Positions 6,602 to 40,818 of a stretch of DNA of 53,108 nucleotides are shown here, piece after piece. Positions within the stretch are counted from its first letter, which is position 1. The number at the start of each line of letters is the position of its first letter. Source of the stretch: a virus; the IMG/VR virus record IMGVR_UViG_3300031975_000697, positions 1 through 53,108 of that record, one strand, 5' to 3'. The position numbers and the translations under genes are program-made. Below the pieces are notes generated by a model. That model saw only the letters and a program-made list of their open reading frames with translations. It had not been told where the DNA came from and did not search any database.

Positions 6602-6677
6602 AGGCGCCTAGCTCAACTGGTAGAGCAGCGGTCTCCAAAGCCGCAGGTTGGGGGTTCAAGTCCCTCGGCGTCTGCCA
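6602..6677 (+). tRNA. tRNA-Trp (anticodon CCA)
   Basis: A full cloverleaf can be drawn. The acceptor stem AGGCGCC pairs with GGCGTCT, and there is a D-arm GCTC...GAGC. The anticodon stem GCGGT/GCCGC carries loop CTCCAAA (anticodon CCA) and the T-arm has loop TTCAAGT. The 3' CCA is encoded. tRNA-Trp at this place, just before lysin A, is typical of cluster A phages. A stoperator follows after five bases. Confidence 0.95.
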
Positions 6678-34495: not shown

Positions 34496-34665
34496 CACTC
34501 CTCCTTCTCGGAGATGACGAGCTTGCCGTCCTCGATCTCTAGGATCAGCTCGGACTTGCAGCTGTTCGGGAACTCGGCTGCGACGATGTCCTCCAGCTCG
34601 TCGTACGTGTCGTGAAACATCGAATCGAACTCGATCCGGAGAACCTTCTCGGACGATGTGTACAT
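34495..34665 (-). CDS. Hypothetical small protein
   Basis: 56 aa: MYTSSEKVLRIEFDSMFHDT, then acidic helix and a strand ELILEIEDGKLVIS. Overlaps its neighbours by one base on each side. No family recognised. Confidence 0.65.
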   Translation of the reverse strand: MYTSSEKVLRIEFDSMFHDTYDELEDIVAAEFPNSCKSELILEIEDGKLVISEKEE

Positions 34666-34952
34666 CAGGCTCCCTTTCGGTGGTAGATGCCCCGGACGAT
34701 GCGGGACACGGTGGCGTTGTGGATGTCGTAGATGTCTGCGATCTCGTGCTGCGTCACGCCCTTTCGATGCATGGCACGGATCGACCTGACCTCTCGGTCG
34801 GTGAGCTTCGGCCTGTTGGACTTGGGCTTCTGCGCCTTCATCACGACCATTCGACCTTCTCGGAAAGCGTTGTTCTCGGCCTCCAGCTCCTCGACGAGTT
34901 TGACTACGTCCGAGAGGATCTCGTGTGCTCTCGATACCGGGTCTTCGATCAT
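34665..34952 (-). CDS. Helix-turn-helix DNA-binding protein
   Basis: 95 aa. The C-terminal half holds KLTDREVRSIRAMHRKGVTQ followed by HEIADIYDIHNATVSRIVRG, a resolvase/homeodomain-like HTH with a basic tail. The N-terminal half is a coiled coil, probably for dimerisation. It resembles the DNA-binding part of HNH homing proteins and small phage regulators. A local regulator role is inferred. Confidence 0.78.
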   Translation of the reverse strand: MIEDPVSRAHEILSDVVKLVEELEAENNAFREGRMVVMKAQKPKSNRPKLTDREVRSIRAMHRKGVTQHEIADIYDIHNATVSRIVRGIYHRKGA

Positions 34953-35131
34953 CCGGCCTCGCTGATGATGATCTCCAGGACCTCGTTCAGGTTGACGATC
35001 GCGGTGTCCCCGTTGGAGGCGGTGATCTCGAACGTCCGAGACCGGTCGTTGATCCGGTAGTCCAGGTCGGAATTGACCGTGGCAGCGAGGAATCGGCCAT
35101 CCTCGATGTAGCTGATCACTACGAACTTCAT
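34949..35131 (-). CDS. Hypothetical small protein
   Basis: 60 aa from ATG 35131: MKFVVISYIEDGRFLAATV, then YRINDRSRTFEITASNGDTA. Beta-rich, like the proteins at 34122 and 34495; these small beta proteins may be related to each other. It overlaps the HTH gene by four bases. Confidence 0.65.
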   Translation of the reverse strand: MKFVVISYIEDGRFLAATVNSDLDYRINDRSRTFEITASNGDTAIVNLNEVLEIIISEAG

Positions 35132-35135
35132 CAGG

Positions 35136-35375
35136 TCAGCTCTCGTTGTCCCGCGCGACGGCGGCGTTGCCCCAGAACATCGCCTCTTCGAGCTTCGTGA
35201 TGGCCAGAGACTTCTCACGTCCCACCGGCAAGTGCTGGTCCAGGAACAACGCAGCACGCTCGATCGTGGCGCGAACGCTGGTGTGTTCGTTCCGCTTCTC
35301 TTCGGTCGTTGCCGGGTGGAAGGCGAATCGGTGCGAGATCTCGGACTGCGAGCTCTCGGTTGAGTGGTTGGGCAT
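35136..35375 (-). CDS. Acb2/Tad1-like cyclic-nucleotide sponge (anti-CBASS/anti-Thoeris candidate)
   Basis: 79 aa from ATG 35375, with AGGAGAGGAAAC upstream. The protein has a disordered Ser-rich start, then HRFAFHPATTEEK. The helical hairpin follows: RATIERAALFLDQHLPVGRE and KSLAITKLEEAMFWGNAAVA. The 'LPxGREKSLAITKLEEAMxW' pattern is the signature of the Acb2/Tad1 hairpin family. Members bind cyclic di- and trinucleotides or related signals and so block CBASS (and some Thoeris) immunity. Assignment is from recalled motif; length (about 80-100 aa) fits. It follows a stoperator and a 100-bp leader, and lies directly downstream of a SLOG-domain gene. Confidence 0.78.
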   Translation of the reverse strand: MPNHSTESSQSEISHRFAFHPATTEEKRNEHTSVRATIERAALFLDQHLPVGREKSLAITKLEEAMFWGNAAVARDNES

Positions 35376-35459
35376 TCTTGTTTCCTCTCCTGAAAGTTGT
35401 TGGGGCGCGGCGGAAGGCATCGGCACCTCCATTAAGCGTTGTGAAGACGCACCGCTCCC

Positions 35460-35472
35460 GTTCGGTGTCAAG
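35460..35472 (-). promoter_or_regulatory. Stoperator (CTTGACACCGAAC)
   Basis: Perfect site directly after the SLOG/zinc-ribbon gene and upstream of the Acb2-like gene. No -10 box is seen at 16-18 bp, so it looks like a stoperator, not a promoter. Confidence 0.82.
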
Positions 35473-35474
35473 TG

Positions 35475-36395
35475 TCAGCGCAGGAATTGCGCCTTGCACT
35501 CGTCGTTGCGATCTCCGCTCGCGCAGAAGAATCCCTCGTACGCCTTGCCGGCCTTCGAGGTCCCGGAGCGGTAGTTCATCTTGCCGTGCCGGCAGAAGCG
35601 CTCCTCGCCGTTGGGGGCTTCCTGAGCCGCCTTGGGCGCGGACTGGGACTTACCGCCCCCTCCGCCCTTGCCGCTCTGCGAGCCCTGGCTGGCGAAGTGC
35701 TTGCCGGCCACCTGCGTCCGCTCCATGAGCTTGGCGAGCTTGGCCGCATCGCCGTCTTCGCTGACGGCCTCCAGCGCCTCGTCGAGCGTGTTGGCGTGGT
35801 AGACGATCCACGGAGCGTCGTACCCGGTGCCGCCCTTGAACGTCAGGACCCACTTGCCGTCGCCCTGCGGGACGATGGCCGGCGCCGTGGTGGCCTGCGT
35901 CTTGGTCTCACCTCCCGAGAACGACGACTGCTGCGACTCCTGCGGCGGGGCCTGAGTCTGGGCCTCGTCGTCGGCGGGGGCTGATGCGAAGGGGTCTTCG
36001 ACTGCCAAAGTGATCTCCTTTGTTATTACTCGTATTCCGAGACGTTGTGCCTCGGACATGCAGTGCCTAGTGCCTCTCGACTCCCCGCATATGAATGCGA
36101 GGCACACGTTGGCTCCTAGTTGCGCCATATCGGCGTTTCTTCTGAACCCGGCAGCCTTTCCATACCGGTTCCAGTTCGCAGGGTGCTTGTCCTGGAGGAC
36201 TCCGTTCCTCTCGCACCACTCCCTAGCGAATCTGTCGGCGCCTTTAGGGCAATCGCCGTGCCTGACAACCAGTTCCAAGCCCGAAGACAGTGCGTGCGCT
36301 GCCAGTAGATCCAGCGCAGACCACACAGGTGCCTTGTCATAGAACAGGCGGGAGCCGGTTATCAGGACTACGAACTGACCTACTTGATCGGACAT
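35475..36395 (-). CDS. SLOG (YspA/DUF2493-like) domain fused in frame to a zinc-ribbon protein
   Basis: 306 aa as one frame from ATG 36395. Residues 1-125 form a YspA-type SLOG nucleotide-binding domain: [29 protein letters not shown] and [15 protein letters not shown]. After [14 protein letters not shown] comes a second protein: acidic/Gln linker, a domain with [19 protein letters not shown], and a C-terminal zinc ribbon [12 protein letters not shown]...[12 protein letters not shown]. The join contains AAAGGAG then TTG at 36008, so the second part (177 aa) can start alone. In related phages, as recalled, it is a separate gene of probable ssDNA-binding type. The frame overlaps the RNR stop by 16 nt. 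Confidence 0.72.
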
Positions 36396-38449
36396 GCTCC
36401 GTTGGCGCAGTCTTCGTCTACGCCGTCCGAAACTGACTTGGTTGTCGCAGCTTCGTACTGCTGCTTGGTGATCCGCTCGTACGGCGCCTGTTCGTAGGAC
36501 GCCTCCGGGAAGATCGTGGAGCCCTTGATGAGCCCCGAGAACTTCACGAGCATGTCCGCGACGTCCTTCGCCGTGTACGCCTGCGGGTCGACGTTGGCTG
36601 TGAACGAGACCGCGTTGTCTGCCCAGCACGTCTGGTAGAGCGCCTGGAACGCGAGCATCTCGTTCAGTGTCAAGTCTGCCGCCGACTGGACGATCTCCTC
36701 CGCGTCGGGTCCGTACAGCTCGACGACCTGAGCCACGAGGCTGTCCTGTGTCGGGATCGTGACAACCGTGGTGTTTTCGGCATAGAGGTCAGCTTCGACC
36801 TCGTACCCGTCCATCACATACTCGTTCACTGTGTCCCGCTGTGACTGGTCGAAGTCCGAGAACCGGATGCGGCGGTTGAAGTACTTCGAGAAGATCGGGT
36901 GAATCCCCTCGGATACTCCGGGCATCTTGGAGATGGTGCCTGTAGGCGCCACCGTCCTCTTCTTCACCGGCACCGGGATACGGAGCTGGTGAGCGAACGC
37001 CTCTGCCTCTTTGTCGACGACCTCGGACAGCCAGCGGAGCTTGTCCCGGAACCAGGGCATGTTCGGCCCGTCCGAGTACTTTCGATGGCACAGCGCCAGG
37101 AACGACGCCACGCCGAGGTGGCCTACGCCGATACGGCGGTTGCGATCGAGAACCTCCCGCGACTTCGGATCTCCCACCGGGGAGAACGTCGCACGGATGA
37201 GGAACCGCGTCATCAGCCGGTGAGCTGTCAGTAACCCAAGTTGATCCACCTTCCCGTTGTCGCGGACGAACGCCGCGAGGTTGATGTGCCCGAGGTTGCA
37301 CGGCTCCCACGGTTCGAGGGTGATCTCGCCACAGGGGTTCGTACAGACGACCTCGTTCGGCTCTCCCTGGTTGGACACCGAGAAGTCCCACATTCCCGGC
37401 TCTCCGTTGCGTACAGCGCCCTCTGCGAGGGTGGTGAGCACGTTCCGGGCTAGAGTCCCGGCCTTGGCCGTCGACAGGGGTCCTCCGTTGACCTGCTGCC
37501 AGAACTCGTCATCGACCTCGACCGAGATGTTCGTCGTCCAGTGGTCCCCGGACTCCTTCTTGCAGTTGACGAACTCGGTGATCTGAGGATCGGCCCAGTG
37601 CATCATCGCCATGCGCGCTGAGCGCCTGACGCCACCGGCCACCACACACTGTGCGATGGCGTGGTCGATCTTCATCGCGTCGATGCCAGTTAGGTGCCCT
37701 CTGACGGCGAGGGTATCGGTGCTGTACCAGTGGGTAGCGTCGCTCAAGATCTCGCAGACGTCGATCAGCATCCGAGCCAAGGGAAGAGGGCCAGAGGCCC
37801 GACCTCCGAACGTGCGGAGCTTGGTACCGGCACCGCGCACCCGGGACACGTCGTAGACGCGCCGGAAGTGGCTCACCTCGTCGCGGTAGTGGGTCTGGAT
37901 AAGATCCACCAGAGCAGCCGCCCAGCCTTCACGAGAGTCCTCGATCTGGAAGGCACCGGCCCAGTCCACGTCGTAGCGATCGGACAGGACACCGGCCTCT
38001 TTGAGTTCCTCGTAGTCGGGATGCTCGTCGTCGCAGACGATCTCGACGTACAACTCCTGTTGCACAGGCGGATAGTGTTCCAGGAATCGGTTCGAGTAGT
38101 TCGCGCCGACTCCCCCTCCTTCCATCAGGCGTAGGAACGTGAACTCGAAGTGTTCCCAGGGCTTCTCGGTCCAGCCGCTCACCCAACAGTTGAAGAGGTG
38201 CTGCGCGTTCTTGACGCCGGATGCCCAGAGGTGCCGACCTGCTGGGAGGAGTTTGAACTCCGTCATCAGGTCGATGAGTTGTTCGCGCTCCCCTTCGAGT
38301 TGGTGCCGTGAATCGACCAGAGCCAAATTACCGTCCACGACACGGCGAACCGTTTCGGGCCAAGATTCCTTACTGCCGTCTGGCTTTGTACGAGAGTAGG
38401 TCCGGTTATAGACAAGCTCTCCCGTTGGCCCCCAGTTGATCTCACTCAA
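36380..38449 (-). CDS. Ribonucleotide reductase, class II (adenosylcobalamin-dependent)
   Basis: 689 aa from TTG 38449, which overlaps the upstream stop (TTGA) and has AAGGAGG five bases before it; no ATG is as well placed. Motifs: HLFNCWVSG near the N-terminus, VCTNPCGEI with [10 protein letters not shown] at the active site, [15 protein letters not shown], and a redox Cys pair CANGACPIK at the end. It reduces ribonucleotides with vitamin B12 cofactor, as in L5. It supplies dNTPs alongside dCMP deaminase. A stoperator (36662-36674) lies within it. Confidence 0.93.
36662..36674 (-). promoter_or_regulatory. Stoperator inside RNR gene (CTTGACACTGAAC)
   Basis: Matches the consensus inside coding sequence, read here in the frame TTG-ACA-CTG-AAC (L-T-L-N). 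Intragenic, so it can act only on elongation. Confidence 0.72.
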
Positions 38450-39431: not shown

Positions 39432-40202
39432 CTAGACCTCCCAGGATCGTCCGTCGACCGTGAAGCGACCTTTGTCGATGGTCACGATCTCGGGCTTGAC
39501 GTACTGCGACTCGACGGTGATGATGCCGAATCCCATCTGCCAGTTTCCGGTGCCGCCCTTCAGGTAGCCGGCCTTGCGCATGTCCATGAGGTGGCCGACC
39601 TCCATGCCGTGGAGCTTGCGCTTGACCGTACCGCCGTATCCCTTCGAGTACGACCCGATGGCCAGACGGTGGGTGTGCCCCATCACGACCGACACATCGA
39701 ACCGCTTCGCGGCGTTCGTGGCCGTGTTGCCGGCGATCGGAGACATGCCGATCATGCCCCGGTGGCCGTGGGTGGAGATCCATCCCGGAGCGATGTCGTA
39801 GAACTCTGGCAGCAGCCTGATCCCGAACCCGTCGAAGTCGAGCAGGTTCTCGATGTTGAACGGGCTGTTGGCCTGAGCCAGCGCGGGGGCGTACTTCTCC
39901 AGGTACACCCGAGGCCGCTCGTCGTGGTTACCTTCGTGGACTCCGATGGGGCCGTCGTAGACGGCGCGGAGTGGCTCCAGGAACCGACGCTTGGCGGTGT
40001 CCACGTCCTCGAAGATGGAACCCTCGAACTCCGCTCGGGAGTCCTTCGTCCACCGGGACGGCTGCGGGAAGTCCATCAGATCTCCGATGTGGACTACCTC
40101 GTCGGGCTGGTACTCCCCGATGAAGCTGACGACCGCCTTGACCGCCTTCTGGTGGTCGTACGGCATCTGCGTGTCGGGGACGATAACGATGCGTTTCGTC
40201 AA
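39432..40202 (-). CDS. Metallophosphoesterase
   Basis: 256 aa from TTG 40202, with GGAGG nine bases upstream. All calcineurin-type metal motifs are present in order: VPDTQMPYDH, HIGDLMDF, GNHDER, STHGHRG and MGHTHR. Phage enzymes of this class act as nucleases or phosphatases; Mre11/SbcD-like DNA processing in replication or recombination is plausible. A longer frame to 40349 is open but lies inside the upstream gene. Confidence 0.85.
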   Translation of the reverse strand: MTKRIVIVPDTQMPYDHQKAVKAVVSFIGEYQPDEVVHIGDLMDFPQPSRWTKDSRAEFEGSIFEDVDTAKRRFLEPLRAVYDGPIGVHEGNHDERPRVYLEKYAPALAQANSPFNIENLLDFDGFGIRLLPEFYDIAPGWISTHGHRGMIGMSPIAGNTATNAAKRFDVSVVMGHTHRLAIGSYSKGYGGTVKRKLHGMEVGHLMDMRKAGYLKGGTGNWQMGFGIITVESQYVKPEIVTIDKGRFTVDGRSWEV

Positions 40203-40203
40203 A

Positions 40204-40818
40204 CTAGTTGTCCTCCAGGGCCTCTGTGAAAGGACCTTGTCCGATTTTGTTGTAGTTGACCGGCCCTCCGTAGTTACCCCAGAGCCAGTCGTTGCACTCG
40301 GGGTACCACTTCCAGACTTCCCCGCCCGCTGATCGGGCTTTGGTGCCATCTCGCGGAATGTCCTGCTTCGACTCCCATACCCGAGGCTGGGCAGGCTGGT
40401 TGATGTGGCTCAGGAAGAACGAGTCCGACACCCTAGAAGAGGTGTGCTGCTCCAGGAGTTCTTTCTCCCAGTCCGCGATCGGCTCTGATTCCAACGCGTC
40501 CTGCGGTGCCGGAATTGTCGGGGAATCTGAGGTATCTTCTTCCTCGTAGATCCGCTCGGCGCAGCCGGCGTAGCCCGCGATGTCGGTGAACGAGTCCCGG
40601 TGGTATCCGGTGCCCTTCACCCTGGCTACCTTCACGAGGATCATCAGGTTCGCCACGTCGAGATCGGTGACCTCGATGCCGAAATAGGCGCCGAACAGCG
40701 CCGCGATGTCGCGGAAGTTTTCGCGAGGGTGGCCGTAGTTCTTGTTGCGCTCCCCGTGGATGAGCGTCTGAGCCTCTTCCAGGATCGAGTACTTCTCAGT
40801 TCCCAGGTCGATCGTCAT
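40204..40818 (-). CDS. DUF6378-like protein with C-terminal domain
   Basis: 204 aa. The N-terminal about 95 residues (EEAQTLIHGERNKNYGHPRE, then VARVKGTGYHRDSFTDIAGYAG) match, as recalled, the DUF6378 phage family, possibly a MazG-like helical domain. A linker of about 30 residues leads to a Trp-rich C-terminal part (EVWKWYPECNDWLWGNYGG). The family's activity is not known; nucleotide binding is a guess. ATG at 40818 overlaps the upstream stop. Confidence 0.72.
   Translation of the reverse strand: MTIDLGTEKYSILEEAQTLIHGERNKNYGHPRENFRDIAALFGAYFGIEVTDLDVANLMILVKVARVKGTGYHRDSFTDIAGYAGCAERIYEEEDTSDSPTIPAPQDALESEPIADWEKELLEQHTSSRVSDSFFLSHINQPAQPRVWESKQDIPRDGTKARSAGGEVWKWYPECNDWLWGNYGGPVNYNKIGQGPFTEALEDN

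What the first reader, a model, noticed from the sequence alone, without database searches (positions are those of the whole stretch)
35136..35375. Acb2/Tad1-like sponge protein in a mycobacteriophage early operon
The 79-aa protein carries the hairpin motif LPVGREKSLAITKLEEAM, characteristic of Acb2/Tad1-fold proteins that sequester cyclic nucleotide signals of CBASS and related immune systems. It would be an early counter-defence gene. Which signal it binds in mycobacteria is not known from sequence.
Basis: partly seen in the sequence, partly recalled or inferred. Interest (0 to 1): 0.78.

Follow-up and report, generated by a model that had tools for sequence, protein, structure and literature searches.

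The report
Phage sponge for bacterial alarm signals
A small gene in a mycobacteriophage-like virus very probably makes an Acb2-type sponge protein that soaks up the alarm molecules bacteria use to trigger suicide during infection; this is a new member of a known family, not a new kind of system.

Summary
Window 35136-35375, on the MINUS strand, encodes a 79-aa protein with the quoted motif. It matches Pfam PF24729 (Acb2/Tad1 hairpin) at 72.9 bits against a cut-off of 27; the experimentally known T4 Acb2 scores 71.4 on the same model. The predicted fold is one short and two long helices, no strands: the Acb2 layout, without Tad1's beta-sheet domain. A cyclic-oligonucleotide sponge is therefore the best explanation; gcADPR is the less likely ligand. 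Related genes are in 303 of 50,697 phage records; one, Xandras gp101 (46% identical), is already published as a CBASS antagonist. In the cluster-A-like genomes read, the gene is present or absent at one fixed spot; other phages carry it elsewhere. Host-side targets exist: 28 of 198 genomes of a Mycobacterium-type genus carry a SMODS cyclase, with neighbours pointing to dinucleotide and trinucleotide signalling. Binding, hexamer formation and protection were not testable here. Verdict: correctly identified, ordinary; new member of a known kind.

The parts
35136..35375 (-). acb2-like gene, 79 aa (P0001), PF24729 Acb2/Tad1 hairpin
35178..35231 (-). codons of LPVGREKSLAITKLEEAM (residues 49-66): turn and start of the most conserved helix
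35384..35391 (-). Shine-Dalgarno-like AGGAGAGG, 8 nt before the ATG
   Evidence: read; no expression data
34949..35131 (-). next small gene downstream (starts 4 nt after the stop codon of the acb2-like gene), no family match
   Evidence: a small gene holds this place in 20ES, Anthony, Remus and Pharaoh
34665..34952 (-). HTH gene (PHROG 517) that marks the fixed spot in related phages
35475..36395 (-). SLOG (YAcAr) domain joined in frame to L5/D29 gp49-family protein, directly upstream
   Evidence: neighbour only, no shown link to the sponge

Best explanation
The gene makes an Acb2-type sponge. Shown here: family membership, a predicted protomer of one short helix and a long helical hairpin, and a position in the leftward operon of replication and nucleotide-metabolism genes. 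Inferred: the protein assembles into a hexamer, as solved Acb2 does, and binds cyclic di- and/or trinucleotides made by host CBASS cyclases after infection. By holding these signals rather than degrading them it keeps suicide effectors (CapV-type phospholipase, SAVED-HNH nuclease, membrane effectors) silent long enough for the phage to replicate. Cyclic oligonucleotides are favoured over gcADPR because the beta-sheet domain that helps form Tad1's gcADPR pocket is not predicted.
For: PF24729 72.9 bits, cut-off 27, with T4 Acb2 as positive control at 71.4 bits and the published Xandras gp101 at 59.1 bits on the same model. PDB sequence matches: 'Acb2 homolog 43' 9ptq 7.9e-6 alone and 3e-10 with profile A1; Tad1 chains 2.7e-5 with A1. 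Profile comparison with T4 Acb2: E 1.8e-5, 78%. Predicted helices 7-16, 25-48, 53-75, no strand, pLDDT 86.5, as the review PMC12043709 describes Acb2. Accessory behaviour: present or absent at one spot in relatives, at other spots in other phages. Host genus has CBASS cyclases in 28 of 198 genomes with phospholipase, SAVED-HNH and membrane effector neighbours.
Against: No binding or infection data for this protein or, in the literature searched, for any mycobacteriophage homologue. Residue F82 that stacks on the base in T4 Acb2 is A74 here, although Pseudomonas p26 also has alanine there. Profile similarity to T4 Acb2 is limited to 30 columns of the last helix, and a forced global alignment scores only 14.9%. 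Structure searches do not separate Acb2 from unrelated hairpins. The neighbourhood is nucleotide metabolism, not a recognisable anti-defence island.
Confidence: 0.8

Rival explanations
1. It is a Tad1-like sponge whose main target is the Thoeris signal gcADPR.
For: Profile A1 matches Tad1 chains (2.7e-5); ThsB_TIR matches occur in 22 of 198 genomes of the same genus.
Against: The predicted protein has no strand, while Tad1 has an N-terminal beta-sheet and binds gcADPR with its loops; at 79 aa it is much shorter than the Tad1 chains of 123-138 aa. Several of the ThsB_TIR matches lie in frames of about 1000 aa, not typical ThsB.
Confidence: 0.06
2. It is a small helical protein of the hairpin family that now serves phage nucleotide metabolism or replication, for example as a partner or regulator of the RNR/ThyX/gp49 products, not counter-defence.
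For: In the window and in four related genomes it sits among RNR, ThyX, gp49 and polA genes.
Against: Homologues sit in quite different places in Bernal13, Fionnbharth, Farewell, Henry and Xandras, and three relatives with the same replication genes lack it.
Confidence: 0.1
3. It is a decayed sponge that no longer binds any signal.
For: No functional data exist for this branch; the base-stacking F82 of T4 Acb2 is not kept.
Against: Intact frame with a Shine-Dalgarno-like site, and the majority residue at all 18 invariant or nearly invariant family positions.
Confidence: 0.04

Closest known systems
Acb2 of phage T4 (Vs.4, PDB 7uq2) and of Pseudomonas phage (p26, PDB 8h2j, 8ixz)
   Same: Same Pfam family at equal score to T4 Acb2; same helix layout; shared A-x-T-K-L-x-E-A-x-x-W core in the last helix.
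   Different: Only 9 of 18 residues identical in the BLAST-aligned stretch with T4 Acb2; shorter loop before the last helix; A74-R75 in place of T4 F82-Q83; ligand not measured.
Published mycobacteriophage homologues: Xandras gp101 and BigBubba gp102 (cluster E; PMC11953737, abstract and passages)
   Same: Same family; Xandras gp101 46% identical over 63 residues and 59.1 bits on PF24729.
   Different: Other cluster and other place (after a ClpP-like protease); also without functional test, the authors calling its role unknown.
Acb2 homolog 43 (PDB 9ptq)
   Same: Best solved relative by sequence (7.9e-6); six chains of 76 aa in the entry.
   Different: Source phage and ligand are not told by the tool; lacks the conserved W and N of the last helix.
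Tad1 (CbTad1, PDB 7uav, 8smd, 8kbf)
   Same: Related hairpin: Tad1 RENACALTHVEEALMWMN against REKSLAITKLEEAMFWGN here.
   Different: Tad1 has an extra N-terminal beta-sheet domain (PMC12043709), not predicted here.

Membership tests
Acb2 | Match to PF24729 (Acb2/Tad1 hairpin) above the curated cut-off | tested here: met
   72.9 bits vs 27; T4 Acb2 71.4 as control
[quoted passage not shown]
   Predicted H7-16, H25-48, H53-75, no strand, pLDDT 86.5; a prediction, compared with the description in PMC12043709
Acb2 | Structural match to solved Acb2 above background | tested here: inconclusive
   7uq2 Z 6.1, rmsd 3.8, 57 aligned, 30% identity, tied with unrelated hairpins; no Foldseek match at E <= 0.001
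Acb2 | Hexamer with pockets for cyclic dinucleotides and trinucleotides | not testable with these tools
   Single-chain prediction only; no ligand assay
Acb2 | Aromatic residue stacking on the base (F82 of T4) | tested here: inconclusive
   A74 at that position by the Pfam coordinates, but Pseudomonas p26 has alanine there as well
Acb2 | Protects phage from CBASS | not testable with these tools
   Needs phage and host experiments
Tad1 | Helical hairpin of the Acb2/Tad1 family | tested here: met
   PF24729; Tad1 chains at 2.7e-5 with profile A1
Tad1 | N-terminal antiparallel beta-sheet domain | tested here: not met
   No strand in the model; 79 aa against 123-138 aa for Tad1 chains
Tad1 | Binds gcADPR and blocks Thoeris | not testable with these tools
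   Needs binding assay

The most novel reading that the evidence does not exclude
The RF-x-[FY]-H-P branch of these hairpin proteins, common in phages of Mycobacterium, Gordonia and Paenibacillus, is a sponge class with its own ligand preference (for example trinucleotides only, or an undescribed signal of actinobacterial CBASS), and in this virus it works together with the upstream SLOG-gp49 protein as a two-gene signal-blocking unit.
Probability: 0.1. Interest if true: 0.55.

Novelty: new member of a known kind. Interest (0 to 1): 0.3.

Why it matters
Most homologues seen are filed as 'hypothetical protein': none of the 60 rows listed carries an Acb2 or anti-CBASS name. Recognising them predicts a counter-defence function for a few hundred phage genomes, mostly actinobacterial (303 records), and gives a direct test of whether CBASS limits mycobacteriophages, a role that the authors of PMC11953737 call unknown. 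Natural pairs of cluster-A-like phages with and without the gene at the same spot make that test practical.

Tried and rejected
Structure comparison as proof: a 79-aa helical hairpin matches too many unrelated folds, so the case rests on sequence profiles. PADLOC and NCBIfam do not recognise P0001; NCBIfam misses T4 Acb2 too, so that is uninformative. Panoptes, which Acb2 triggers in E. coli (PMC12657218, passages), was sought as mCpol in 198 genomes of G001's genus: 0 of 198, but no control genome rang either, so absence is not shown. PF24729 itself was found in only 2 of 198 of those genomes, G001 and G005, both already known to hold it. Promoter scan of 34500-36500: none found, 0.2 expected, uninformative for phage promoters. 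Plasmids: 6 of 72,556 records match. The primary Acb2 papers could not be read: three ids not held. No statement that something is absent from print is made beyond the searches.

Rows dropped: one search kept 80 of 107 relatives; from 68 distinct proteins four were left out of A1 (L006 start uncertain, L026 and L073 fragments, L066 near-duplicate). Of 30 SMODS places in 28 genomes, 20 regions were fetched and neighbours at 17 scanned; L145, L154 and L156 were not scanned. Of the 17, 13 had an effector model, 2 only E1-E2 (L147, L155), 2 neither (L149, L151). For the T4 profile A2, 21 of the 35 loci were used, plus T4 itself.

Full report
What is there. It lies in a leftward operon. Upstream (in transcription order) are a metallophosphoesterase, a gp53-family gene, a class II ribonucleotide reductase and a SLOG-gp49 gene; downstream are small genes, an HTH gene (PHROG 517) and a 606-aa frame in the place where related phage records have DNA polymerase I. 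The window is a 53,108-base virus record whose nearest DNA relatives are Mycobacterium (886 of 918 matching records) and Gordonia (31) phages; no record covers 80% of the 25-kb query.

Family. PF24729, Acb2/Tad1 hairpin, matches at E 2.5e-20, 72.9 bits, cut-off 27. As a positive control the T4 sponge Vs.4 (Acb2) scores 71.4 bits on the same model, and Xandras gp101, the gene published as a CBASS antagonist, 59.1 bits. Xandras gp101 and P0001 share 46% identity over 63 residues. A single-sequence PDB search finds 9ptq, 'Acb2 homolog 43', at 7.9e-6, and Tad1 only at E 1.2. A profile of 65 sequences finds 9ptq at 3e-10, Tad1 chains at 2.7e-5 and T4 Vs.4 at 0.39. Profile against profile, A1 versus a 22-sequence T4 Acb2 alignment gives 78% probability and E 1.8e-5, over 30 columns of the last helix; a forced global alignment gives only 14.9%. 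PHROG 1454 (unknown function) is the phage-family match.

Fold. AlphaFold2 on A1 gives mean pLDDT 86.5, pTM 0.74, helices 7-16, 25-48 and 53-75 and no strand. The review PMC12043709 (parts 1 and 2 of 4 read) describes the Acb2 protomer as one short N-terminal and two long antiparallel helices, and Tad1 as an N-terminal beta-sheet plus two helices, with its gcADPR pocket made by loops and helices of two protomers. The protein is thus built like Acb2. Comparison with solved structures cannot prove this: Foldseek gives nothing at E <= 0.001, and in the second look T4 Vs.4 with cGAMP scores Z 6.1 (rmsd 3.8, 57 residues, 30% identity), tied with unrelated hairpins.

Residues. By the Pfam coordinates, T4 Y8 corresponds to F19 here (Y in 31 and F in 28 of 65 sequences), and T4 F82 to A74. 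F82 stacks on the bound base in T4 Acb2 (PMC12657218, passages). Pseudomonas p26, solved as 8h2j and 8ixz, also has alanine there (alignment), so the change does not exclude dinucleotide binding. The stretch REKSLAITKLEEAMFW-x-NAA-x-AR is nearly fixed across the family.

Distribution. By tblastn, 303 of 50,697 phage records match at E <= 1e-5: 186 Mycobacterium, 53 Paenibacillus, 40 Gordonia, 10 Streptomyces and others. In 20ES, Anthony, Remus and Pharaoh the gene sits between ThyX and the small gene plus HTH gene upstream of polA; the window keeps the spot but has no ThyX match. Morpher26, A10ZJ24 and A9GX2 have ThyX, small genes and polA in that order but no homologue (tblastn, none at E <= 1 in the stretches fetched). 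Elsewhere it is the first gene before terminase in Bernal13, among the left-end genes of Fionnbharth, beside RelBE in Farewell and after ClpP in Henry and Xandras. A gene that comes and goes at one spot and reappears at unrelated spots behaves like an accessory gene, as counter-defence genes do (inference).

Possible targets. In the genus of G001 (the genome that holds the Mycolicibacterium rhodesiae locus L082), 28 of 198 genomes have a SMODS cyclase at E <= 1e-5. At 17 of the 20 fetched loci neighbours were scanned with PADLOC: phospholipase effector at L140, L142, L143; SAVED-HNH nuclease at L141, L144, L146; 4TM effector at L150, L152, L153, L157, L158; 2TM at L139; 1TM at L148; only E1-E2 at L147 and L155; neither at L149 and L151. 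According to PMC12043709, CapV phospholipase responds to 3'3'-cGAMP and Cap4 to cA3 or cAAG, so potential hosts probably use both dinucleotide and trinucleotide signals. ThsB_TIR matches occur in 22 of 198, several in frames too long for typical ThsB. The true host of this virus is not known.

Mechanism. Most likely the protein is a hexameric sponge for CBASS cyclic oligonucleotides, expressed with the replication genes. Membership and predicted fold are shown; hexamer, ligand, timing and protection are inferred.

Known or new. Mycobacteriophage Acb2 is already in print for cluster E (PMC11953737, abstract and passages), whose authors write that its role in mycobacteriophage infection is unknown, and for a Microbacterium phage (PMC13348362, passages). 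The searches (listings read) showed no functional study of such a protein in mycobacteriophages within the held open-access library. This finding is therefore a further member, in a cluster-A-like virus, of a known family.

Noticed in passing
window 35475-36395, minus strand: A 306-aa frame joins a YspA/YAcAr SLOG domain (PF10686, 51.2 bits) to an L5/D29 gp49-family protein (PF25690, 188 bits), overlapping the end of RNR and directly upstream of the sponge gene. A TTG near 36008 with AAGGAG before it could also start gp49 alone (read). Related SLOG modules are in 911 of 50,697 phage records, in other places in the rows shown.
   Followed up: partly
window 39432-40349, minus strand: A metallophosphoesterase (PF00149) in the same leftward operon, of the kind that cluster A phage A10ZJ24 needs (gp48) to kill M. 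tuberculosis (PMC12287305, abstract, introduction and passages). Whether this copy is an enzyme or an RDF like Bxb1 gp47 was not tested.
   Followed up: no
window, whole record: No ThyX (PF02511) match, although ThyX precedes the acb2-like gene in the four related genomes read that carry it.
   Followed up: partly
   Followed up: no
window 6602-6677, plus strand: A tRNA-Trp gene (anticodon CCA) in the left arm.
   Followed up: no
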